From the NCBI GenBank assembly GCA_017522105.1, contig JAFXAA010000012.1, forward strand, positions 1 to 51,069: 51,069 bases of DNA, written 5' to 3'. A model generated the notes under the pieces. It searched no databases. It saw only the letters and a list, made by a program, of their open reading frames with translations, and was not told where the DNA came from. Positions 14,031 to 51,069 of this stretch are shown here, in pieces. Each line of letters begins with the position of its first letter. Position 1 is the stretch's first letter. This stretch comes from Bacteroidales bacterium (GTDB taxonomy: Bacteria; Bacteroidota; Bacteroidia; Bacteroidales; P3). The translations under genes were made by a program, and so were the position numbers.

Positions 14031-14627
14031 TCAACGGCCGCAGTAGCCGGTCACATCCACGTCGGCCATAGGCAGCCGTGCGTCAAGGCTCACTGTGGTT
14101 CCACCGACGGTCACGCCGCCGAGCGAGCACACAAGCTCTTCGCGGTCCTCGGCAACCTTCAGCGTGCCGCTGGCGAAGATGCTGATCCCGTCATACGTCT
14201 CCTGACCAAGCGAGCCGTAGAAATAGCCACCGATGTTGTTAAGACTGAAGTTGGGCACACGCTCGCCAGACAGCGAGAAGTCATACCCGTCGGAAGGCGA
14301 TGCCGCGGCGAGGTCGGACGTGCGCCCAAGGGCCGTCTCCATGATTTCGATGGAGAAGAGGTACAGCACCTCGCCCTCCGGGCAGCGCGAGCTGACGATG
14401 TATCGCCCGTTGGGGGCTTTGGTGGCCGTGGTCAGCAGCGGATACACGGTGCCGTCAAGCACCAGCTCATTGAAGCCCGCCGTCACAGTCGGCGGCGCGT
14501 CGGGCACAACGGCAGGCGCGGCGCCCTGCACAGCGGCATCGTCGGCCTTGTCGCAGGCGGCCGACAGCACAGCCACCGCAACGGCGGCACACAGCAGGCG
14601 GACAATCTTCATCGTTTTCATATACAT
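14031..14627 (-). CDS. lipoprotein of unknown function
   Basis: 198 residues from the first ATG; an ATG at 14612 gives the cleanest signal peptide, with lipobox LSAAC. After the Cys comes a short Asp/Ala/Pro-rich linker, then a globular, strand-rich domain with features such as GRYIVSSRCPEGEVLYLFSIEI and a Gly-rich end. I do not recognise a family. It is monocistronic, with a well-spaced promoter (14683-14714), and diverges from another lipoprotein gene across a perfect palindrome. Confidence 0.75.
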   Translation of the reverse strand: MYMKTMKIVRLLCAAVAVAVLSAACDKADDAAVQGAAPAVVPDAPPTVTAGFNELVLDGTVYPLLTTATKAPNGRYIVSSRCPEGEVLYLFSIEIMETALGRTSDLAAASPSDGYDFSLSGERVPNFSLNNIGGYFYGSLGQETYDGISIFASGTLKVAEDREELVCSLGGVTVGGTTVSLDARLPMADVDVTGYCGR

Positions 14628-14682
14628 GCGCTATTAATTCATTACCAATTCATTGAACACCCTCAAACATACTTTCGCGATG

Positions 14683-14714
14683 CAAAAATACAAATATTTC
14701 CACTATCGTGCAAA
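14683..14714 (-). promoter_or_regulatory. promoter of lipoprotein gene 14031-14627
   Basis: Minus strand: TTTG (14714-14711), exactly 20 nt, then TATTTTTG (14690-14683). Both elements fit the consensus. Confidence 0.75.
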
Positions 14715-14784
14715 AAAAACGACACCCCACCTCAAAAAAATCCACCACCACCATCTCCACCACCCAACCGCACCGCATCCCCTA

Positions 14785-14885
14785 CGGAGCCCCTACGGCA
14801 TTTCTTCAGTAGTTCTTCAGTAGTTCTTCAGTCAAACACTGAAGAACTACTGAAGAACTACTGAAGAAATGCCGTAGGGGCTCCG
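14785..14885. repeat. palindromic element, copy 1
   Basis: A perfect inverted repeat: 48-bp arms at 14785-14832 and 14838-14885 around the loop CAAAC. Each arm has an outer CGGAGCCCCTACGGCAT and an inner tandem of 11-bp units, TTCTTCAGTAG. The 101 nt are identical to copy 3 (50951-51051). It lies between the two divergent promoters, so it is not at a gene end; there is no U-tract. No open frame is suggested. Confidence 0.95.
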
Positions 14886-14914
14886 GTGCGGAGAGGGAGA
14901 AAAGATGAAAAAAA

Positions 14915-14946
14915 TTTGGCCATATTGCGGAAAGTATGTACTTTTG
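14915..14946 (+). promoter_or_regulatory. promoter of lipoprotein gene 15058-15792
   Basis: TTTG at 14915-14918, 20 nt, TACTTTTG at 14939-14946. It starts 30 bp right of the palindrome. Confidence 0.75.
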
Positions 14947-15057: not shown

Positions 15058-15792
15058 ATGAAGAAAATGTTCAAAGTGTTCGGCATCGCGCTGCTGGCAT
15101 GCAGCCTGCTGACCGTGGCCTGCCAGAAGGACGAGGACACCTCCAGCACCACAACCACCAACAACAGCGGCAACAATGGCGGCGGCACCAACCCCACACC
15201 AAACCCCAACCCAAATCCGAACCCCAACCCCGACCCGCAGCCGCAGCCACAGCCACAGACCGGTACCATGACCTTCTCATGGGACAATCAGGTAAAAGAG
15301 CTTCGCGCCGTGGAAATACAATACTACATCATGGGTGAAGATGCCGTACAACTGTTTATCGACGGCTCTGGCAACAAAACCAACAATGGTCAGACCGATG
15401 TGGTCGAACTGCCTTCCTACAGCATCCAGATGAAATACATCGGCGAGCAATATTCTAACGCTCAACCACTCGACATCATGACCGACAGAGTAAGAATATT
15501 CTCTGAAGAAGTGGCCGACCACATGGATATGTTCACCACACCAAGCCAAAATGGAGACGGTCTTGTGACACTGAGTACACCTGACTACAAATACGTCAGC
15601 CACACAAAGGAAAACCTCAGCTATGACATGACCAACAATACATTCAGCGGCACCTTCACCATTACGCTCTCCAGCGTGTATGACGAAGCCTCCGGCATAA
15701 GCCCTATCAGACAGAAAACGCTGACTGTCACCGCAAACCAGTACCCCGCAACGCCCTTCCAGCAGGGTAGCAAGAAAGCCATAAGAAAATAA
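15058..15792 (+). CDS. lipoprotein with Pro-Asn/Pro-Gln repeat linker
   Basis: 244 residues from the ATG at 15058. The signal peptide MKKMFKVFGIALLACSLLTV ends in AC (lipidated Cys21). A Thr/Ser/Asn/Gly stretch follows, then a (PN)n-(PQ)n spacer at about 43-67, probably an extended stalk lifting the domain off the membrane. The remaining 175 residues form a strand-rich domain beginning TMTFSWDNQVKELRAVEIQ. I do not recognise a family. It has its own promoter and ends at a bidirectional terminator. Confidence 0.8.
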   Translation: MKKMFKVFGIALLACSLLTVACQKDEDTSSTTTTNNSGNNGGGTNPTPNPNPNPNPNPDPQPQPQPQTGTMTFSWDNQVKELRAVEIQYYIMGEDAVQLFIDGSGNKTNNGQTDVVELPSYSIQMKYIGEQYSNAQPLDIMTDRVRIFSEEVADHMDMFTTPSQNGDGLVTLSTPDYKYVSHTKENLSYDMTNNTFSGTFTITLSSVYDEASGISPIRQKTLTVTANQYPATPFQQGSKKAIRK

Positions 15793-22106: not shown

Positions 22107-23564
22107 TCAGTTGTCAATCCAATCCTGCCACTCGGCCTTCTGCTCCTCTTTAACGGTGCTCTCCCAGGGGCCGTGCAGCAGGATGCCGCTGGCCGGCGGC
22201 GGCGTGATGTCGTAGTGCGGCGTGCCGTCGGGCCGCAGCAGCACGAAGGTGGGATAGCTCACCACCCCGAAGCGTTCCAGCAGGCGGTAGTCGCCGTCGT
22301 AGTGCAGCCACGTCCAGTTGTAGCGGTGACCGCGGCGGTTGTTCTTGAGGAAGTGGTACATCTTCTGGAACTCGCGGTCGCAGCTGACGCTGACGAACAC
22401 CACGTCGGGGTGTTTCTCGTAGACGCTGTCGCGGAAATGGGCCATGGCCTCAATCTCCGCCAGCGATGCCGGCTCGCCCACGCGCACAAAGCTCAGGTAG
22501 ACCCACTTGCCCGCAAAGCTGCTCAAGGCCACGGGCCTGTGCTCCACGTCGGGCAACACAGCCTCGCGCTCCACGGGTGCCGCCGAGGCCTTCAGGTGGC
22601 GCAGCAGCGACGCCGCCAGGGCGCGGTGCTCCTCGAAGCGGCTCTCGCTCCCCACGGTCTCCACCATGCGCAGCACTGCGGCGCGGTCGTAGGCGCGGTC
22701 GTAGAAGCTCTCCTTCAGGGCTTGGAGCATGGCCAGCTCGCGCACACGCTCATTGCGTAGCAGCGGGTCGAGGCCTATGGAGTCGGCGTAGCGCGCCGTC
22801 TCGCCGCCCTCCACCCACGCCACCAGGCGGTCCTGCCCTATGCGGCGCGTGCCGTGCGACACGGTGCCCTCATACAAGGCCAGGAACAGCCTCATGTACT
22901 GCTCGTCATAGTAGCGCACCGGCTGGTCTTTCACATAGCGGTCTATCAGCTTGGCGCGGCTCGTCGAGTGCATGGCCAGGGCCATCTCGGCCAGCGTGTA
23001 CTCCACATAGCGGCCGAAGAAATCGTCCTCCAGCGGCCCCACGGCCTTCATCACCACCGCCCGCAGGGTGTCCATGCGGCGGCGGTCGGGCTTGAAGCGC
23101 GGGTCGAAGAACACACGGTTGGCCACCATAAAGCTGTCCACCAGAGCTTCGTAGCGCCCAATGCGCACGTTCAGCTCATCGTCCGGCAGGTGCATGAACT
23201 CCAAGGGCAGAGGCTCGGGGTCAAGGTACACGTTGCGGCTTTCGTCCACACTCCAGTCAAACTCCGGCAGCCACACCTCGTATGTCCTGCCGGGCTCCAC
23301 GAAGAACGACTGGCTGTAGCACTCCGCCTCCACGTAGACCAGGCGCGGATAGTTGGCATAGCAGCGCAGGGCGAAGCCCCCCGTGCTGTCGACCACGGCC
23401 TCGTCCAGCAGCACGGCGTCCATCGACAGCATGTCGCTATAGCCGTAGAGCGACAGCCGCTTGCCGGCGGCATTGGCCGACGAGCCGCTAATCAGCACAT
23501 TGGTCTGCCCCATGGCAGGTAGCCACAGCAGCAAAACGGTGATTATTAGCACTACACGTCTCAT
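22107..23564 (-). CDS. TlpA/thioredoxin-like periplasmic protein without CXXC
   Basis: 485 residues: signal peptide (MRRVVLIITVLLLWLPAMGQ), a DUF4369-like N-terminal domain (about 22-120), a helical middle and a thioredoxin fold at about 335-485. Where TlpA proteins have WCxxC, this one reads YLSFVRVGEPASLAE (about 356-370): both cysteines are missing. The cis-proline loop (VVSYPTFVLL) and strand VVFVSVSCD are kept. It is thus unlikely to exchange disulfides and may be a binding module. First gene of the operon leading to folC, downstream of palindrome copy 2. Confidence 0.8.
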   Translation of the reverse strand: MRRVVLIITVLLLWLPAMGQTNVLISGSSANAAGKRLSLYGYSDMLSMDAVLLDEAVVDSTGGFALRCYANYPRLVYVEAECYSQSFFVEPGRTYEVWLPEFDWSVDESRNVYLDPEPLPLEFMHLPDDELNVRIGRYEALVDSFMVANRVFFDPRFKPDRRRMDTLRAVVMKAVGPLEDDFFGRYVEYTLAEMALAMHSTSRAKLIDRYVKDQPVRYYDEQYMRLFLALYEGTVSHGTRRIGQDRLVAWVEGGETARYADSIGLDPLLRNERVRELAMLQALKESFYDRAYDRAAVLRMVETVGSESRFEEHRALAASLLRHLKASAAPVEREAVLPDVEHRPVALSSFAGKWVYLSFVRVGEPASLAEIEAMAHFRDSVYEKHPDVVFVSVSCDREFQKMYHFLKNNRRGHRYNWTWLHYDGDYRLLERFGVVSYPTFVLLRPDGTPHYDITPPPASGILLHGPWESTVKEEQKAEWQDWIDN

Positions 23565-23673
23565 GACAACGTAATAAACGTCGCGCGCCCGCTTTTATTG
23601 TACACAATGGAGCAAAAAGTAATCAACCACTTGTCAACACCCCGCTCCACACCCCCACGGACCAGCACCGCAC

Positions 23674-23860
23674 CGGAGTCCCTACGGCATTTCTTCAGTA
23701 GTTCTTCAGTAGTTCTTCAGTAGTTCTTCAGTGTTTGACTGAAGAACTACTGAAGAACTACTGAAGAAGTGCCGTCGCGGAGGCGACGGAACTACGCCCT
23801 TCGGTGGAAGAAGTGCCGTAGGGGCGTCGGAGGGACGACGACGCAACTACGCACCTTCTG
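23674..23860. repeat. palindromic element, copy 2 (composite)
   Basis: The left arm starts CGGAGTCCCTACGGCAT and has four TTCTTCAG-type units; the right arm has three. A 31-bp perfect stem is formed by 23702-23732 and 23738-23768. The loop is GTTTG, the reverse complement of the CAAAC loop in copies 1 and 3. Right of the hairpin are two related modules, each beginning GAAGAAGTGCCGT and including an ACTACGC word (about 23764-23804 and 23808-23860). The first contains a small stem CCGTCGC/GCGACGG. The second includes CGTCGGAGGGAC, also found right of copy 3. Confidence 0.85.
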
Positions 23861-24043
23861 CGTACCAGAGCCGGTGCGGAGTGATTGTTGAAGAATAGCC
23901 ACCGTGCGCCTCCACGACAACGCTGCATTGAAACTGGGCCCCAGCCAGGCTCCAAATGAGGCCACTACCAACTAACAACCAGGCACTTGCATGTCGTGAC
24001 ACGTATTTAAACGAACTTTTTTTACTGATAAAGTTTTTTTTTG

Positions 24044-24121: not shown

Positions 24122-25543
24122 ATGGAGAAGAAAAAATATCGCAGCGAGAGCGACCTTCTCGGCACCCACGAGGTTCCCGAGGCTGCCTATTATGGAGTAC
24201 AGACATCACGCGCAATGGAGAACTTCCGCATCAGCGGACACCTCCTCGCAAGCTACCCCAATTTCATCCGCGGCATGGCCATCACCAAGAAGGCTGCCGC
24301 CATCGCCAACGTCGAGGTGGGAATGATCACCCCCGAGCAGGGCGAGGCCATCCAGTGGGCCTGCGACCAGCTCATCGAAGGCAAGTACCACGACCAGTTC
24401 CCGATAGACATGATACAGGGCGGCGCCGGCACGAGCACCAACATGGCCGCCAACGAGGTTATTGCCAACCTCGCCCTTGAGTGCATGGGCCACAAGAAAG
24501 GCGAGTACCAGTACTGCTCGCCCAACGACGTGGTCAACGCCAGCCAGAGCACCAACGACGCCTACCCCTGCGCCATCCACATGGCCCTGGCCCTTGAGCA
24601 CCTGGGCTTCATGCCCCACCTGGAGCAGATTATCGCCGCCCTGGACTACAAGAGCAAGGAGTTTGCCGATGTGGTCAAGATGGGCCGCACGCAGCTGCAG
24701 GACGCCGTGCCCATGACCCTGGGGCAGACCTTCGGCGCCTTCGCCGACTCGCTGCGCGGCGAGTACAAGAACCTGCGCGCCACGGCCGATGAGTTCCTCA
24801 TCGTCAACATGGGTGCCACGGCCATCGGCACCGGCATCTGCTCCAAGCCCGGCTACAGCGAGGCCTGCATCAAGGCCCTGCGCAAAATCACGGGGTGGAA
24901 TATCACCCTGGCCGACAACCTCATCGAGGCCACCAGCGCCACTACCTGCATGCTCGCCTACAGCGCCGCCATGAAACGCCTGGCCATCAAGACTAACAAA
25001 ATCTGCAACGACCTGCGCCTCCTCAGCAGCGGCCCGCGCTGCGGCCTGAACGAGATACACCTGCCCGAGCGCCAGCCCGGCAGCAGCATCATGCCCGGCA
25101 AGGTGAACCCCGTCATCCCCGAAGTGATGAACCAGGTGTGCTACCGCGTCATCGGCAACGACATGACCATCAGCCTGGCCAGCGACAACGGCCAGCTGGA
25201 GCTCAACGTCATGGAGCCCGTCATAGCCTACACCCTCTTCGAGAGCATCCACCTGCTGGAGAACGGCTACGACACCCTGCGCACCCTCTGCATCGACGGC
25301 ATCAAGGCCAATGTGGAGCGCTGCCGCCAGCTTGTGGAACACTCCATCGGCATCGTCACCATGCTCAACCCCATCATAGGCTACAAGCAGAGCACCAAGA
25401 TTGCCAAGGAAGCCTCGGAGACAGGCCGCGGCGTATACGAGCTTGTGCTTGAGCACGGTCTGCTCACCAAGGAGCAGCTCGACGAGATACTGAAGCCCGA
25501 GAACATGCTACAGCCCGTGGATTTGACTGCCAAGAAACAATAA
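24122..25543 (+). CDS. aspA: aspartate ammonia-lyase (aspartase)
   Basis: Splits L-aspartate into fumarate and ammonia. The 473 residues belong to the fumarase/aspartase superfamily, with the catalytic-loop signature GSSIMPGKVNPVIPEVMNQ (about 319-337). VIPEVMNQV and QLELNVMEPVIAYTLFESI are aspartase-like; class II fumarases have a different sequence after the NP. A fumarase role cannot be fully excluded. Its stop overlaps the nqrA start by one base (TAATG), so it leads the nqr operon. This ties fumarate production to electron input for fumarate reduction; frdCAB/sdhCAB lies 7 kb downstream. Confidence 0.93.
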   Translation: MEKKKYRSESDLLGTHEVPEAAYYGVQTSRAMENFRISGHLLASYPNFIRGMAITKKAAAIANVEVGMITPEQGEAIQWACDQLIEGKYHDQFPIDMIQGGAGTSTNMAANEVIANLALECMGHKKGEYQYCSPNDVVNASQSTNDAYPCAIHMALALEHLGFMPHLEQIIAALDYKSKEFADVVKMGRTQLQDAVPMTLGQTFGAFADSLRGEYKNLRATADEFLIVNMGATAIGTGICSKPGYSEACIKALRKITGWNITLADNLIEATSATTCMLAYSAAMKRLAIKTNKICNDLRLLSSGPRCGLNEIHLPERQPGSSIMPGKVNPVIPEVMNQVCYRVIGNDMTISLASDNGQLELNVMEPVIAYTLFESIHLLENGYDTLRTLCIDGIKANVERCRQLVEHSIGIVTMLNPIIGYKQSTKIAKEASETGRGVYELVLEHGLLTKEQLDEILKPENMLQPVDLTAKKQ

Positions 25544-32319: not shown

Positions 32320-33279
32320 ATGAACTTACCGAAAATCCATTCCATCACGAAGAAGATTCTCGTGGCCCTGGTAGGCGGTTTCCTCTTGGTTTTCCTGCTC
32401 TTCCACATGACGGCCAACCTCTTCGTTCTTCGCCACGACGACGGTGCCTGGTACTCCGCCTTCTGCCACTTCATGGGCACCAACTGGATTGTGAAGATCT
32501 TCGAGATTATCCTGCTGGGCGTCTTCGCGCTGCACATCCTGCTGACCCTGTGGCTCCAGCTCACCAACCGCCTGGCGCGCCCCGTGCGCTACCATGAGGC
32601 CCAGAAAAGCAAGACCCACACCTCGTCGAAACTCATGATGTGGACCGGCATCCTCATCTTCGCCTTCCTGGTGATGCACTTCTGCCAGTTCTACTTCATC
32701 AAGATAGGCTGGGTGAAAGGCGAATACATGGTGGAGACCGAGAAGCTGCAGAGCGACGAGATCATGGGGCTGGTGCAGTACTCCAGCCAGATGGGCATGA
32801 CGCCCGAGGAGTTCATCGACGCCATGGAGAGCGAGTCGGCCATGTATGCCGAAGAGAACGGCGACAGCGAGGAAGTGGACGAATACCTGGCAGGCATGCG
32901 GGACAAGCTGGGAGTCATCAACATCGTGAAACGCGCCAGCGACGAAGGCAACATCAGTGCCGACGGCAAGTGGATACGCCACCTCTCGTACGACGAGCGC
33001 CAGACCCTGAAGAAGGTGTTGCCGGAGAGCAAGCCCGAGCCCGACTTCTACTTCATGGTGCGCGAGCTCTTCCACAACCCCCTGATGGTGCTGCTCTACC
33101 TCATCACCTTCGTGGTTCTCTTCCTCCACATGCGCCACGCCTTTCCCTCGGCATTCCAGACCTTGGGCCTTAACAACTACAAGTACAACAACATCATAGA
33201 GTGGTGCGGACGCATCTACGCCTGGGTCGTGTGCCTCGGCTTTGTCGTGGTGCCCATTTTGGTATACCTCGGCTTGTAA
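32320..33279 (+). CDS. sdhC: succinate dehydrogenase/fumarate reductase cytochrome b, with insertion
   Basis: Membrane anchor of the complex, binding haem and menaquinone. About five helices: 12-34, 55-80, 105-128, 255-272 and 297-316, with His residues in or near them (for example His29, His71, His120, His270) as haem-ligand candidates. The family member in Bacteroides is about 230 residues; this one has 319. The excess is a hydrophilic, acidic insert of roughly 90-100 residues (about 135-240: ETEKLQSDEIMGLVQ through VLPESKPEPD) in the loop between helices 3 and 4. No frameshift is seen. First gene of sdhCAB. Confidence 0.92.
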   Translation: MNLPKIHSITKKILVALVGGFLLVFLLFHMTANLFVLRHDDGAWYSAFCHFMGTNWIVKIFEIILLGVFALHILLTLWLQLTNRLARPVRYHEAQKSKTHTSSKLMMWTGILIFAFLVMHFCQFYFIKIGWVKGEYMVETEKLQSDEIMGLVQYSSQMGMTPEEFIDAMESESAMYAEENGDSEEVDEYLAGMRDKLGVINIVKRASDEGNISADGKWIRHLSYDERQTLKKVLPESKPEPDFYFMVRELFHNPLMVLLYLITFVVLFLHMRHAFPSAFQTLGLNNYKYNNIIEWCGRIYAWVVCLGFVVVPILVYLGL

Positions 33280-33280
33280 A

Positions 33281-33313
33281 CATTTACGCATTAACACATT
33301 AACGCATTAACGC
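33281..33313 (+). repeat. 8-bp tandem repeat before sdhA
   Basis: Units ACATTTAC-like then GCATTAAC, ACATTAAC, GCATTAAC, GCA, running straight into the sdhA ATG (33315). The same RCATTAAC word fills the hairpin at 38262-38349. Confidence 0.75.
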
Positions 33314-33314
33314 A

Positions 33315-35267
<1,953 letters not shown>

Positions 35268-37181: not shown

Positions 37182-38249
37182 ATGGAACACGAACACAACT
37201 GCCACGAAGGCCACGAGCACGAACACAACTGTCACGAGGGCCACGAGCACGAACACAACTGCCACGAGGGCCACGAGCACGAACACTGCTGCCACGAACA
37301 CGGACACAACGGCCACGATCACCACCACGAACACGAACACCACCACGACCACCACGGGCTGCACCACCATCACCACGCGCACGCGATAGAGAAATTGTCT
37401 ACCATCTATATCGTCGCCGTGGCGCTCAACCTGCTGTTCGTCATCGTCGAGGCCGTGGCGGGCTTCGTCGGCAACTCTCTCGGCCTGCTCTCCGACGCCG
37501 GGCACAACCTGAGCGACGTCTTCTCGCTCATCCTGGCCATGATAGCGCTGAAGCTCGCCTCCAGCCACGCCACCAAGCGCTTCACCTACGGCCACCGCAA
37601 GGCCTCCGTCCTCATCTCGCTCCTCAACGCCATCATCCTGCTGGTCGCCGTGGGCGCCATCATGGTTGAGAGCGCGCAGAAGTTCTTCAACCCCAGCGAG
37701 GTGAGCGGCGACCTCATCATTTGGACTGCCGCCGTGGGCATCGTCATCAACGGCGTCACCGCCTGGGCGCTGAGCCGCCAGCAGAAGCACGACATCAACA
37801 CGCGCGGAGCTTTCCTCCACATGCTGGCCGACACGCTGGTCAGCGTCGGCGTGGTCGTCTCCGGCGTGGTCATCAAATACACCGGCTGGTGGATCATCGA
37901 CCCAATCATAGGCCTCGTCATCGCCGTGGTCATCCTCGTCAGCACGTGGGAGCTGCTGAGCGAGAGCCTGCGCATGAGCACCGATGCCGTGCCAGAGGGC
38001 TACGACGTGGACGACATCAAGCAGCAGCTTGAGAGCCAGGAGGGTGTGCTCAACGTGCACCACATCCACATCTGGCCCATCTCCACCACCGAGACAGCCC
38101 TCACGGCGCACATCGTGATACCCGAATCGTCAATGCTTGAAGAGGTGACCGACCGCCTCAAGGAGCACCTCGACGGCCTCGGCATACACCACAGCACCCT
38201 GGAGTTGGAGACTCGCAGCAGCCACTGCCACGACCACGACTGTTGCTGA
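37182..38249 (+). CDS. cation diffusion facilitator, probably zinc exporter
   Basis: 355-residue CDF transporter (metal/H+ antiporter, cytoplasmic membrane). Residues 1-68 are a His-rich cytosolic tail made of three 10-residue repeats EHEHNCHEGH and further His/Glu clusters. Six helices follow; SDAGHNLSD (TM2) and HMLADTLVS (TM5) give the H-x3-D pairs of the Zn2+ site seen in ZitB/CzcD-type proteins. The C-terminal domain ends in SSHCHDHDCC, a second metal-binding tail. Zinc is the likely substrate; cobalt or cadmium cannot be excluded. Monocistronic. Confidence 0.92.
   Translation: MEHEHNCHEGHEHEHNCHEGHEHEHNCHEGHEHEHCCHEHGHNGHDHHHEHEHHHDHHGLHHHHHAHAIEKLSTIYIVAVALNLLFVIVEAVAGFVGNSLGLLSDAGHNLSDVFSLILAMIALKLASSHATKRFTYGHRKASVLISLLNAIILLVAVGAIMVESAQKFFNPSEVSGDLIIWTAAVGIVINGVTAWALSRQQKHDINTRGAFLHMLADTLVSVGVVVSGVVIKYTGWWIIDPIIGLVIAVVILVSTWELLSESLRMSTDAVPEGYDVDDIKQQLESQEGVLNVHHIHIWPISTTETALTAHIVIPESSMLEEVTDRLKEHLDGLGIHHSTLELETRSSHCHDHDCC
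37185..37307 (+). repeat. 30-bp coding repeat in the CDF His-rich tail
   Basis: Three nearly identical 30-bp units and part of a fourth encode EHEHNCHEGH repeats. Few substitutions separate the units (GAAGGC versus GAGGGC), suggesting recent duplication or slippage. Confidence 0.85.
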
Positions 38250-38261
38250 AGGGAAATGAAG

Positions 38262-38349
38262 AATGTGTTAATGTGTTAATGCGTTAATGCGTTAGTGCCT
38301 ATACATTAACACATTAACGCATTAACACATTAACGCATTAACACATTAA
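38262..38349. repeat. 8-bp tandem inverted repeat hairpin between convergent genes
   Basis: Left: GTGTTAAT twice, GCGTTAAT, GCGTTAGT. Loop about GCCTATA. Right: six units of RCATTAAC type. The arms pair over about 30 bp. A TTCATTCTTCATTC stretch follows at 38359-38379, entering the tcdA stop region. It separates the CDF gene (+) from tcdA (-) and may act as a terminator for both. Confidence 0.8.
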
Positions 38350-38367
38350 ATCCCAATCCTTCATTCT

Positions 38368-39066: not shown

Positions 39067-39150
39067 AAGAATGAAGAGTGAAGAATGAAGAATGGGTCGG
39101 CGCAAATATCCCGTACCCGGATAATTCTTCATTCTTCACTCTTCATTCTT
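39067..39150. repeat. 27-bp perfect inverted repeat, GAAGAAT type
   Basis: Arms 39067-39093 and 39124-39150 are exact reverse complements made of AAGAATG/AAGAGTG words; the loop is 30 nt. It fills the gap between the SUMF1-fold gene and tcdA, both on the minus strand, and touches the stop codon of the former. Probably a transcription terminator or attenuator; the origin is unexplained. Confidence 0.85.
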
Positions 39151-40039
39151 ATTTTTTATTTATCACCACCCTGAAACCGAAGTCGAACCCCTTGCTCATG
39201 GAGCTCAAGCCCTCGCGGTGCGCCACATGGCAATACTGCGCCGAGTCGTTGCAGGAACCGCCACGGAAGACGCGCCCGCGGTCGGACGACACCGGTCCCT
39301 GGGGGTCAACGACGGCTTCGGTGCCGAGGACGGAATACCAGTCTGCGCACCACTCACGAACATTGCCCGTCATGTCGCGGAGGCCCAAGGCGTTGGCCGA
39401 CTTGCCGCCGACTGCGGAGGTGTGCCGGATGACGAGCGTCGTGTCGCGCCCTGTCTGCCGACTGGTGGTGTTGACACTGCAGTGCGGCGCATTCTCCCAA
39501 TACCAGCCCACATTGCCCAGATTGTTGCCGCCCGCATAGTCGGTGCGGGTTGCAGGTGCGCGGTGCCCCCCCTGCGCGGCATACTCCCACTGCGCCTCGG
39601 TGGGCAGCGTGAAGCGGTAGCCGGTGAGCTGCGACAGCTTCTGGCAGAAATGCACTGCATCCCAATGGCTTACCTGGTCCACGGGGTAGTTGTCGCCGTA
39701 GGTGAACTCCGACGGGTTAGCCTGCATCACCGCACGGTAGAGCGCCTGCGTCACCTCCGTGCGCCCTATATAGTAGTCGTGCGACAGAGTGACCTGATGT
39801 TCAGGGCCTTCGGCATCATAACCACCCATGGTGAACGTGCCGCTGTGCACCAGCACCATGTCAAACGACACCTCGGTGCCGGGCACAGTGAACGACTCCA
39901 CTTCGCGCACCAGCGGTGCCGGTGGCTGCGACGGCGTGGTGCTCCCCTCGCCGGTGTTGACGGTATACTCCTTGTCCGAGCAGGCCGCAAAAGTCGACGC
40001 GAGCACCAGCAGGCTGAATGTCAAAATATTACGCTTCAT
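39149..40039 (-). CDS. SUMF1/formylglycine-generating-fold lipoprotein
   Basis: 296 residues from the ATG at 40039 (MKRNILTFSLLVLASTFAAC, lipobox STFAAC). The rest is an FGE-sulfatase (SUMF1) domain: TFTMGGYDAEGPEHQVTLS, YYIGRTEVTQALYRAVM, LPTEAQWEYAAQGG, DMTGNVREWCADWY and FRGGSCNDSAQYCHVAHR. The cysteine pair of true formylglycine-generating enzymes (GGSxxC...C) is not in register, so it is probably a non-catalytic binding domain as in many Bacteroidetes surface proteins. An upstream in-frame start would add eight residues. A TATATTTG element lies just upstream. Confidence 0.85.
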   Translation of the reverse strand: MKRNILTFSLLVLASTFAACSDKEYTVNTGEGSTTPSQPPAPLVREVESFTVPGTEVSFDMVLVHSGTFTMGGYDAEGPEHQVTLSHDYYIGRTEVTQALYRAVMQANPSEFTYGDNYPVDQVSHWDAVHFCQKLSQLTGYRFTLPTEAQWEYAAQGGHRAPATRTDYAGGNNLGNVGWYWENAPHCSVNTTSRQTGRDTTLVIRHTSAVGGKSANALGLRDMTGNVREWCADWYSVLGTEAVVDPQGPVSSDRGRVFRGGSCNDSAQYCHVAHREGLSSMSKGFDFGFRVVINKK

Positions 40040-40060
40040 CCTACAATTGTTTTTGTTCTG

Positions 40061-40068
40061 CAAATATA
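40061..40068 (-). promoter_or_regulatory. -7 element of the SUMF1-fold gene
   Basis: Minus-strand TATATTTG, 22 bp before the ATG. Confidence 0.5.
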
Positions 40069-40217
40069 CGAAAAAAAGCCGACAGCGGTCCCCGAAGTGT
40101 GATTATTGAACCATTCCGAGCTGACAACAAATTTTAACATATACACTAACAGCTGACTGTCAAACACATGCAGGGTATGGATTTTCGTCATCCCTTGCTG
40201 GCACTGGTTTTGTACGG

Positions 40218-40268
40218 AGTCCCTACGGAGCCCCTACGGCCCCCCTACGGCCGTTCTTCAGTGGAACG
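40218..40268. repeat. palindromic element, degenerate copy 4
   Basis: Three 11-bp units in tandem: AGTCCCTACGG, AGCCCCTACGG and CCCCCCTACGG, then a short GTTCTTCAGTGGAAC that keeps one TTCTTCAGT word. The long inverted arm is missing. Same family as copies 1-3 by the outer words. Confidence 0.7.
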
Positions 40269-40392
40269 CCGTCGAGGGTCCGGCGGGGTGGCGTGGGGGT
40301 GCCGTTGGGGAGATGCACCGGCGTCACGCCTGCAAAGCAGGTGCCCGAAATGAAAAAAAAAGCACAGGCGGCGGAATATCAAAAATATTTCG

Positions 40393-49295: not shown

Positions 49296-50852
49296 TCAGC
49301 TGATGGGCCAGCGGCGGTCGAGGCCGAAGCTGACGGGCGCCACCTTGAGCTGCGGGGCGAACTGGAGGCGCTTCCACTCGTTGCGCGCCACACCGCGCAG
49401 CACCCTCTGCACCACCTCGCGGTCGTAGCCCTCGTCCACGATTTCGTCCTCGCAGAGGTCTTCGTCGAGGTAGAGACCCAGCACAGCATCCAGCACAGCA
49501 TAGTCCGGCAGCGAGTCGCTGTCCTTCTGGCTGGGGCGCAACTCGGCGCTGGGAGCCTTGGTGATGCTGTTTTGCGGTATGCGGATGCCGTCGCGGTTAA
49601 TCCACTCGCTGAGCTGGTACACCTCGGTCTTGTAGAGGTCGCCAATCACCGCCAGGGCGCCGCAGGAGTCGCCGTAGAGGGTGCCGTAGCCCATGGCGGC
49701 CTCGGAGCGGTTGGTGGTGTTCAGCGCCAGGGCACCGAACTTATTGGCGTAGCTCATCACCAGGGTGCCGCGTATGCGGGCCTGCAGGTTCTCCTCGGTG
49801 ACGTCCTCGGCGCGGTCGCCGAAGACGGGCTTCAAGGCCTCGCGGAACTGGTCGAACAAAGGCCTGATGGGCACTATGTCGTAGTCCATGCCGAGGTTGT
49901 GGGCCAGGTCCTCGGCGTCCTTCACAGAATGGTCGGTGCTGTATTGGCTTGGCATCAGCAGGCCGTGCACGTTCTCCGCCCCGAGGGCGTCGACGGCCAG
50001 CGTGGCCACCAGGGCCGAGTCGATGCCGCCGCTCAAGCCCAGCACGGCGCGGCGCAGCCCGTTCTTGGCAAAATAGTCGCGCAGACCGCAAACCAAAGCC
50101 TTGTAGACCAGCTCCACAGCCTCGGGCTTCTCGTCGGGGGCGGTCTCAAGCTGCTGCATGTCGACCGTGCAGCATCCCTGCTCGAAATAAGGCATCTGGC
50201 ACAGCACGCCGCCAGCGGCGTTCATGGCCATGGAACCGCCGGCAAACAGGTAGGGCCCCTCGCCGCCAGTGCGGTTCACGTAGACCAGGCCGGCGTTGAG
50301 CGTCTCCACAATCTTGCTCATGCGGTAGCGCGTACGGTAGGGGCGCTGGTAGTCAAACACCTGGCCGCCGCAACAAATCACCACGTCAGGCTGCTCCACG
50401 TGTCCCTTGCTCAGCTCCTTGAGGTCCTCGTAGAAGCCTATGGCCATGCGCTGGTCGTGGTAGTCGATGACCTGCACCCCCTCGCCGCGCACAAAGCAGC
50501 GCTGCTCGTCGGTGGTGAGGTACTTCTTGGTCACCACGCCGCGTATGGCACAGTTCTGCACGAAGACGATGGCGTTGCAGAGCCCGCGGTCCTGCATCTG
50601 GAGCGGCATGCCGACGAGGAAGGCGCGGTGCTCGGAGAGCTCCACGAGGCGTTGCAGGGCGGCCTGGGCGCGCTTCTGCAGGTCGGTGTAGCCGGCAGCG
50701 GCGAACAGCGGCGCACCGCAGAGGGTGCAGGCCGGGAAGACGGTGAGCAGGGCCTCGCGCGAGGCCTCGGCCTCAAGCTCGGCGGCTATCCATTCAAGGT
50801 TGTCCTCAGGACGCAGCGTGAGGATGTCGTGCTGTACGATGTGTATCTTCAT
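49296..50852 (-). CDS. nadE: NAD+ synthase with degenerate glutaminase domain
   Basis: Last step of NAD+ synthesis: amidates deamido-NAD+. 518 residues: an N-terminal nitrilase-like domain (1-240) and a C-terminal synthetase domain with the ATP P-loop LGLSGGIDSALVATLAVDALG (SGGIDS 274-279). The glutaminase triad of the family is Glu-Lys-Cys. Here FPEL reads FPACTLCG (Ala41), the Lys is kept (Lys109/110 in VTKKYL), and ICEDLW reads GFYEDLKE (Tyr141). Two of three catalytic residues are gone, so the enzyme probably uses free ammonia. The synthetase half looks intact (STDHSVKDAEDLAHNLG, NRSEAAMGY, TKAPSAELRPSQKDSDSLPDY). Palindrome copy 3 lies upstream. Confidence 0.93.
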   Translation of the reverse strand: MKIHIVQHDILTLRPEDNLEWIAAELEAEASREALLTVFPACTLCGAPLFAAAGYTDLQKRAQAALQRLVELSEHRAFLVGMPLQMQDRGLCNAIVFVQNCAIRGVVTKKYLTTDEQRCFVRGEGVQVIDYHDQRMAIGFYEDLKELSKGHVEQPDVVICCGGQVFDYQRPYRTRYRMSKIVETLNAGLVYVNRTGGEGPYLFAGGSMAMNAAGGVLCQMPYFEQGCCTVDMQQLETAPDEKPEAVELVYKALVCGLRDYFAKNGLRRAVLGLSGGIDSALVATLAVDALGAENVHGLLMPSQYSTDHSVKDAEDLAHNLGMDYDIVPIRPLFDQFREALKPVFGDRAEDVTEENLQARIRGTLVMSYANKFGALALNTTNRSEAAMGYGTLYGDSCGALAVIGDLYKTEVYQLSEWINRDGIRIPQNSITKAPSAELRPSQKDSDSLPDYAVLDAVLGLYLDEDLCEDEIVDEGYDREVVQRVLRGVARNEWKRLQFAPQLKVAPVSFGLDRRWPIS

Positions 50853-50950
50853 GTTGTCAATCTTTTCTTTGTCCCATTAACGCGCGCACGCTGCAATTAT
50901 TGTGCACCCCATTCCCTATTTTTTCCACCCCCACCGAGGCGCATCCCCGC

Positions 50951-51069
50951 CGGAGCCCCTACGGCATTTCTTCAGTAGTTCTTCAGTAGTTCTTCAGTCA
51001 AACACTGAAGAACTACTGAAGAACTACTGAAGAAATGCCGTAGGGGCTCCGTAGAAGCGTCGGAGGGAC
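50951..51069. repeat. palindromic element, copy 3 (runs off the window)
   Basis: Perfect inverted repeat with 48-bp arms 50951-50998 and 51004-51051 around CAAAC, identical over 101 nt to copy 1. The right flank (51052-51069) contains CGTCGGAGGGAC, also present in the second module right of copy 2 (about 23825-23836), so the element continues past the edge. Located 99 bp upstream of the nadE start. Confidence 0.95.

What the first reader, a model, noticed from the sequence alone, without database searches (positions are those of the whole stretch)
14785..14885. A repeated, perfectly palindromic 101-nt element built from 11-bp units, sited between divergent genes
Copies at 14785-14885 and 50951-51051 are identical over 101 nt, 36 kb apart, with 48-bp perfect arms and a CAAAC loop. 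Related copies lie at 23674-23860 and 40218-40268. Three of the four sit between divergent genes, and copy 1 lies exactly between two well-formed divergent promoters. The fourth is 99 bp upstream of nadE. Transcription terminators and most REP elements lie at gene ends instead. Perfect identity argues for recent spread or active homogenisation. Inner units TTCTTCAGTAG and outer units ending CCCTACGG both have an 11-bp period, about one helical turn. It could be a non-autonomous mobile element (REP/MITE-like), a protein-binding array, or an insulator between divergent promoters. I know of no named family with this sequence.
Basis: partly seen in the sequence, partly recalled or inferred. Interest (0 to 1): 0.78.

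Follow-up and report, generated by a model that had tools for sequence, protein, structure and literature searches.

The report
Fast-changing palindromes at gene starts
Dozens of spots between genes in this gut bacterium carry a mirror-image DNA array built from 11-letter units just upstream of promoters; related species keep arrays at many of the same spots but have rewritten the letters, which points to an unknown machinery that copies and maintains them.

Summary
The own genome (2.28 Mb draft) holds at least 72 cores of this palindrome, 67 with loop CAAAC. Arms are runs of 11-bp units, the same on both sides, pointing inward. Of 57 copies with genes called on both sides, 49 lie between divergent genes, upstream of the promoters. 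Close relatives carry arrays at the same junctions, with other loops (RUG061) or wholly other units (G102, G095). Near the loop, orthologous copies are no more alike than unrelated copies; 130-230 bp out they are. So sites are inherited while centres are homogenised genome-wide. Many congeners have 11-bp arrays with other letters; samples from seven other genera of the family gave none convincing. A second family and three hybrid arrays in the own genome look like replacement in progress. REP/RAYT and intrinsic-terminator readings fail tests. I read it as a layered, concertedly evolving array at transcription-unit starts, most likely a protein-binding or torsion-absorbing insulator between promoters. 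Function, binding factor and copying mechanism are inferred, not shown.

The parts
14769..14896 (.). Array copy 1: inward-pointing 11-bp units, arms 14785-14832 and 14838-14885, loop CAAAC 14833-14837
14915..14946 (+). Bacteroidetes-type promoter of the right-hand gene (TTTG 14915-14918, TACTTTTG 14939-14946), outside the array
   Evidence: the motif TTTG-N-TAnnTTTG itself is recalled
14664..14690 (-). Promoter-like -7 motifs of the left-hand gene (TATTTTTG on the minus strand at 14683-14690; TATGTTTG at 14664-14671)
14031..14627 (-). Left flanking gene of copy 1, no Pfam match
15058..15792 (+). Right flanking gene of copy 1; only a Pfam match far below its cut-off
23668..23875 (.). Array copy 2: loop GTTTG at 23733-23737 (CAAAC on the other strand), plus the four-unit (44-bp) outer module and further 11-bp units on the right
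22107..23564 (-). Left flanking gene of copy 2, thioredoxin-like
24122..25543 (+). Right flanking gene of copy 2, fumarase/aspartase-type lyase
40216..40310 (.). Degenerate array copy 3 (best lag-11 identity 0.67), between an FGE-sulfatase-type gene (39149-40063, minus) and a DPP IV gene (to 42763, plus); an array lies upstream of the DPP IV gene in G072, G102, G095, G094 and G093 too
50940..51069 (.). Array copy 4, upstream of nadE (49296-50852, minus), at the contig end

Best explanation
These are layered palindromic arrays at the starts of transcription units. Each arm is a run of 11-bp units with the loose outward-reading motif NNNCCGTAGRR (or NNNCTGAAGAA), mirrored around a loop of usually 4-5 nt, lying just upstream of one promoter or, most often, of two divergent promoters. 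Shown: the lattice, the polarity, the position upstream of promoter motifs, inheritance of sites between close species, and homogenisation of the centres within a genome so that loop and unit letters differ between species. Inferred: new unit families enter at the centre of existing arrays and push older units outward, where they decay. Also inferred: the array acts in cis as an insulator between promoters. The likeliest way is as a platform for a DNA-binding protein contacting each 11-bp turn, or as a cruciform-forming sink for the negative supercoiling that builds up between divergent promoters; 11 bp fits the helical pitch usually ascribed to negatively supercoiled DNA.
For: 72 cores whose arms keep an 11-bp register. 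49 of 57 resolved copies divergent, 7 tandem, 1 convergent; divergent gaps are 46% of intergenic bases in the same stretches, p = 4e-10. Sense TAnnTTTG motifs: 85 between element and gene, 11 beyond it. 1 of 144 arms is followed by TTTT. Of the window's seven divergent junctions, the six that stay comparable agree with G102 and G095 in presence (3) or absence (3) of an array although the letters differ. 20 of 45 RUG061/RUG377 elements lie at a junction whose own orthologue has a core (16 own junctions), none at one without (biased, see against). Orthologue versus paralogue similarity changes with distance from the loop. 10 own copies carry the variant ACTGAAATAC on the same side of loop CAAAC. 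Hybrids between unit families at L126, L138 and L352. In 20 congeners lag 11 gives 14 junctions against at most 3 at each of six other lags. Arms of families with other letters match the own unit profile better outward than inward in 28 of 31.
Against: No protein, transcription or structure data exist. In 20 congeners arrays are less tied to divergent gaps: 6 of 29 divergent, 5 of 64 tandem, 3 of 22 convergent junctions. In the own genome the second family lies at 12 divergent and 10 tandem junctions. Many divergent junctions have no array: 3 of 6 inside the window, and 10 of the 13 without a canonical core in all own stretches of that call. At tandem junctions the element is still a palindrome, so palindromy is not simply two promoters back to back. 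Rapid letter turnover is awkward for a fixed binding protein. The haplotype link is not strict: one copy with loop GCGGC also carries ACTGAAATAC, and one of the ten has it on both sides. The own stretches were picked for holding elements, which hides empty sites; 7 of 45 relatives' elements found no own counterpart and 2 of 17 one-gene matches had no own core. G072, G102 and G095 have an array at a convergent gap that has none in the own genome; the nadE array is missing in G076, G094, G093 and G040, and the 23.7-kb one in G093.
Confidence: 0.45

Rival explanations
1. A selfish, function-free palindrome that copies itself, by gene conversion or hairpin template switching, into the centre of existing arrays. 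Its positions reflect only where such arrays are tolerated, away from coding sequence and transcripts.
For: Loop and variant copying between unlinked sites; two families and hybrids; the same inner letters in distant congeners over different outer layers, G039 and G036 against G000.
Against: Presence and absence by junction is kept between close species while letters change; outward polarity and the 11-bp lattice are kept in families with other letters; convergent gaps are nearly unused in the own genome, 1 of 57 and 0 of 22.
Confidence: 0.27
2. A pure DNA-structure element: the long palindrome extrudes a cruciform between divergent promoters and absorbs negative supercoils; no dedicated protein.
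For: Perfect stems up to 60 bp with 5-nt loops and very stable folds; location where negative supercoiling should collect.
Against: Perfect stem of only 6-20 bp in 22 of 72 cores, one of these cut by a contig end; a cruciform needs no fixed 11-bp unit period and no outward motif.
Confidence: 0.15
3. A REP/BIME-like or MITE-like non-autonomous mobile element spread by a RAYT or other transposase.
For: High copy number, palindromy, intergenic location, one Y1 transposase in the genome.
Against: That transposase is flanked by another repeat; three array-bearing congeners have no Y1 match; no sharp end, conservation fades with distance; positions are shared with close relatives; location is opposite to that reported for REPs. 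Target duplications were not searched for systematically and other transposases were not searched.
Confidence: 0.08
4. Bidirectional transcription terminators, intrinsic or Rho-dependent, that stop spurious transcription between divergent promoters.
For: Strong hairpin; by eye C-rich, G-poor flanks when read from each promoter towards the centre.
Against: No T-run: 1 of 144 arms; a terminator needs no 11-bp unit lattice.
Confidence: 0.05

Closest known systems
REP / BIME elements with RAYT (TnpA-REP) transposases
   Same: Many-copy intergenic palindromes, species-specific families, several families per genome
   Different: REPs are reported as 20-40 bp, tagged GTAG or CGTC at one end, mostly between unidirectional or convergent genes (PMC3733652, abstract and passages); here roughly 100-200 bp, 11-bp lattice, upstream of promoters, no linked RAYT
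MITEs (definition recalled)
   Same: Short, non-coding, repeated, inverted symmetry
   Different: No defined ends; sites shared between close species and letters replaced in place; target duplications not tested
Topological insulators (E. coli BIME-2 with gyrase; title seen in the reference list of PMC3733652, otherwise recalled)
   Same: Proposed role in confining transcription-driven supercoils
   Different: BIMEs sit at gene ends (recalled); gyrase binding not tested here
Satellite / centromere layered expansion and PRDM9-type turnover (recalled)
   Same: Newest units at the centre, older decayed units outside; letters turn over while location persists
   Different: Eukaryotic; I recall no bacterial counterpart
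Genome-wide 11-bp A/T periodicity of bacteria (PMC4132750, PMC1242344; start of abstract in a search listing only)
   Same: Same period, commonly read as the pitch of negatively supercoiled DNA
   Different: A statistical bias spread through genomes, not discrete tandem units in palindromes

Membership tests
REP element | Tagged at one end by GTAG or CGTC next to a short stem-loop | tested here: not met
   No single tag or boundary; units repeat and conservation fades over about 88 bp. GTAG does occur inside outer units (CCGTAGGG). Definition
REP element | Mostly between unidirectional or convergent genes, downstream of coding regions | tested here: not met
   49 of 57 divergent, 1 convergent; definition
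REP element | Linked RAYT gene flanked by the same repeat | tested here: not met
   Own Y1 gene flanked by a different repeat on both sides; a degenerate 11-bp array of the present kind lies at the next divergent gap of that locus, about 1 kb away (L185 2980-3090); no Y1 match in G039, G036, G040
MITE | Terminal inverted repeats with target-site duplication and empty sites in relatives | tested here: inconclusive
   No sharp termini; no empty site among 20 fully matched elements, but own stretches were chosen for holding elements; target duplications not tested
Intrinsic terminator | Hairpin followed by a T-run | tested here: not met
   1 of 144 arms with TTTT within 15 nt of the perfect stem
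Intrinsic terminator | Lies downstream of genes | tested here: not met
Invertible promoter (inverton) | Inverted repeats enclosing a promoter-sized invertible segment | tested here: not met
   Arms enclose about 5 nt; promoter motifs lie outside
Topological insulator | Blocks diffusion of supercoils, gyrase binding | not testable with these tools
   needs in vivo assay
Known RNA family | Rfam model match | tested here: not met
   No match at the elements at gathering score in the window or in 12 own stretches

The most novel reading that the evidence does not exclude
A genus-wide, fast-evolving promoter-boundary system: arrays at inherited sites are rewritten in concert by successive unit families that enter at the palindrome centre. 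A trans-acting factor with changing specificity, a bacterial parallel of PRDM9 or centromere drive, would read an 11-bp lattice that is in helical phase only on underwound DNA, so the array would sense or absorb torsion between divergent promoters.
Probability: 0.2. Interest if true: 0.95.

Novelty: categorically new. Interest (0 to 1): 0.82.

Why it matters
Bacterial interspersed palindromes are usually read as mobile debris or RNA elements at gene ends. Here is a class that sits upstream of promoters of genes that include housekeeping ones (dnaB, tpiA, serC, aspS, yidC, phosphofructokinase and nadE among those named), keeps many of its sites between species and yet changes its sequence in concert across the genome. 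It offers a natural system for concerted evolution in bacteria and a direct test of whether bacteria use dedicated insulators between promoters. If a protein reads the 11-bp lattice, it would be a new kind of promoter-boundary factor.

Tried and rejected
RAYT mobilisation, intrinsic terminators, Rfam RNAs and a phage origin (no exact match of the core pattern in viral contigs) were tested and dropped. An assembly artefact was dropped because separate assemblies agree. I looked for cargo or a linked enzyme among 20 proteins flanking elements: 7 pass an NCBIfam cut-off, 8 match below it, 5 have no match at 1e-10; no candidate trans-acting gene was found. In one search no stem of 7 bp or more was found for 16 of 42 arrays; these were left out of the arm count, as were arms with lag-11 identity under 0.5, leaving 31 arms. 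In one search (upstream of nadE in 30 rows) I read a fixed window, so rows cut by a contig end (own, probably G055) were misread, and G021 is filled with N; these three are not counted. My gene caller is a codon-usage script without ribosome-site or homology input. It seems to have missed genes in L138 and labelled one junction tandem that has a tRNA making it divergent (L142); counts are given as called. 15 of 72 own cores lay at the edge of the held sequence and were not counted for orientation (12 beside a gene start, 3 beside a gene end). Literature searches whose listings showed no description of this element; the library holds open-licence papers only. The genus name Candidatus Cryptobacteroides is my recollection and was not tested.

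Full report
What is there. The four window features are real. The window is contig C9 of a 38-contig, 2.28-Mb draft genome. Searching that genome found 299 copies of the unit AGTTCTTCAGT against 3 for the reversed control and 67 exact copies of the core TTCAGTCAAACACTGAA. In the 65 stretches I fetched around the hits plus the window there are 72 cores TTCAGT-N5-ACTGAA: 67 with loop CAAAC in either orientation (36 and 31) and five with other loops. The pattern, scanned in named genomes, gave 48 stretches, all from three Bacteroidales assemblies: RUG061, RUG377 and RGIG5009, the last titled roe deer rumen.

Anatomy. Reading outward from the loop, each arm is ACTGAAGAA followed by 11-bp units. 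Unit 0 is CTACTGAAGAA in 141 of 142 arms and unit 1 in 130 of 141. Further out come units such as ATGCCGTAGGG and GCTCCGTAGGG, with information falling until little is left about 88 bp out; C5, G6 and G9 of the unit last longest. A four-unit module of 44 bp recurs on one side of many copies. The triplet joining inner and outer layers (ATG, CGG or GTG) often differs between the two arms of one copy. Some copies depart from the pattern: L126 has a 15-nt centre.

Position. With my own gene calls, 57 of 72 cores have genes on both sides: 49 divergent, 7 tandem, 1 convergent. Divergent gaps make up 46% of intergenic bases in the same stretches (p = 4e-10). That background is itself raised, because the stretches were chosen around elements. 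One of the seven tandem cases has a tRNA gene that makes it divergent. In RUG061 26 of 30 resolved copies (35 seen) are divergent and in RUG377 6 of 7 (10 seen). Of 112 gene-side flanks, 75 have a sense TAnnTTTG between element and gene; 85 such motifs lie there against 11 beyond the element. The element is therefore upstream of promoter motifs and probably not in the mRNA. Of 20 flanking proteins scanned, 7 pass a curated cut-off: DnaB, SerC, triose-phosphate isomerase, AspS, YidC, phosphofructokinase and an RND adaptor.

Same sites, different letters. Window genes were matched to stretches of relatives. The junctions at 23.7 kb, 40.2 kb and upstream of nadE carry arrays in G102 and G095 made of quite different units (GTTCTACGGTT family), while the junctions at 2.1, 3.8 and 32.2 kb have none in either species, as in the window (the 2.1-kb gap of G102 comes near my threshold, 0.57 against 0.60). 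At the seventh, 14.8 kb, the left gene is missing there and no array is present. More distant relatives keep an array upstream of the DPP IV gene (40.2 kb; G094, G093) and lack others (nadE in G076, G094, G093, G040; 23.7 kb in G093). G072, G102 and G095 have an array at a convergent gap where the own genome has none. Of 45 elements in RUG061 and RUG377 stretches, 20 lie at a junction whose own orthologue was held (16 own junctions), and all of these have a core; 17 match by one gene (15 with an own core upstream of it), one matches two genes that are not adjacent, and 7 found no counterpart. Because own stretches were chosen for their elements, that comparison cannot show empty sites; the window comparison can.

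Concerted evolution. RUG061 loops are mostly GCNGC (30 of 35) where own loops are mostly CAAAC (67 of 72). Comparing 15 orthologous pairs by distance from the loop, similarity within 31 bp is 0.85 for orthologues, 0.87 for non-orthologous pairs and 0.90 for own paralogues; at 130-180 bp it is 0.43, 0.15 and 0.15. Ten own copies carry ACTGAAATAC on the same side of loop CAAAC, one of them on both sides; one copy with loop GCGGC carries it too. This points to copying of stretches between sites. Two own copies have the RUG061 type of loop (L132, L136).

Families and hybrids. TTCTTCAGT-N5-ACTGAAGAA occurs in 8 of 190 family genomes, all of this genus: G000 60, G039 81, G072 39, G082 16, G076 10, G048 5, G036 4, G029 2. 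GTTCTACGGTTGTT occurs 81 times in the own genome, 98 in G086, 100 in G095, 95 in G102, and 1-3 times in three of the other 116 congeners. GAACAATCGAAGAACAATCG occurs 254 times in G040 and 2-35 times in four others of 120. The own genome thus holds two families; the second lies at 12 divergent and 10 tandem junctions in 22 of its 23 clusters (hybrid L138 left out), less tied to divergent gaps than the first (Fisher p = 0.006). Hybrids with one family's arm or centre inside the other are at L138, L126 and L352 (this one is among the 22). G039 and G036 have inner ACTGAAGAA units over outer units (CTACTTGATAC-like) unlike those of the own genome in the two loci of each that I read, as if the same layer had entered different older arrays.

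Range. Four congeners sampled at 100 kb each all carry 11-bp arrays with their own letters. Twenty congeners sampled at 13-20 kb each gave 14 lag-11 junctions of 115, in 10 species, against at most 3 for each of lags 8, 9, 10, 12, 13 and 14. Upstream of nadE, 8 of 27 usable rows passed 0.6 at lag 11 and above the other lags. In 466 kb from seven other genera of the family, 4 of 129 junctions passed at lag 11, A/T-rich in the excerpts printed, with 3 at lag 8; the four genomes whose GC was printed are A/T-richer than the congeners, and the sample is small. Families with other letters share a loose outward unit: 28 of 31 arms score higher outward than inward against the own profile.

What it is not. 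The single Y1 transposase of the own genome lies among another repeat; a degenerate array of the present kind lies at the next divergent gap, about 1 kb away. Y1 matches are found in 73 of 120 genomes of the genus but not in G039, G036 or G040, which are 97-100% complete and carry arrays. Only 1 of 144 arms is followed by a T-run. REPs are reported mostly between unidirectional and convergent genes (PMC3733652, abstract and passages seen).

How it may work. Shown: lattice, polarity, position, site sharing with close relatives, centre homogenisation, hybrids. Inferred: centre-first replacement, insulation, a binding factor. An 11-bp period is commonly interpreted as the pitch of negatively supercoiled DNA (PMC4132750, start of abstract; another paper in the same listing, PMC7537859, start of abstract only, disputes part of that view), and divergent promoters can be coupled through torsion (PMC4154641, passages). 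An 11-bp lattice in that position could be in helical phase only when the DNA is underwound. I give the insulator or binding-array reading 0.45, function-free selfish copying 0.27, cruciform alone 0.15.

Noticed in passing
window 38262-38361 and 33264-33330: Another periodic array: 8-bp units (ATTAACGC/ATTAACAC). At 38.26-38.35 kb it forms a 92% palindrome in a gap between convergent genes; a shorter run spans the 35-bp gap between tandem genes at 33.3 kb.
   Followed up: no
L185 about 900-1345 and 1866-1960: The single Y1 (RAYT-type) transposase gene found in the genome is surrounded by a distinct repeat, CAGCCGTTGAAACGGCTGGCTACCGTTGTCTGGCGCCTACGGCGCC, probably its own REP family.
   Followed up: partly
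window 23769-23812 and many own copies: A 44-bp (4 x 11) module with its own small hairpin recurs on one side of many copies, and is followed by a diverged second module in copy 2.
   Followed up: partly
window 37185-37375: Start of the gene at 37182-38249 encodes a His-rich repeat (HEHNCHEG-like), 30-bp DNA period.
   Followed up: no
L165 2704-2894: Cobalamin riboswitch next to one tandem-sited element.
   Followed up: no
L220, L222, L224 (G040): G040 has a second array family (GTTGAGTAGGA) with one well-kept arm ending GAGTAGGAGTTGGTCT, of different architecture from its palindromic family.
   Followed up: no
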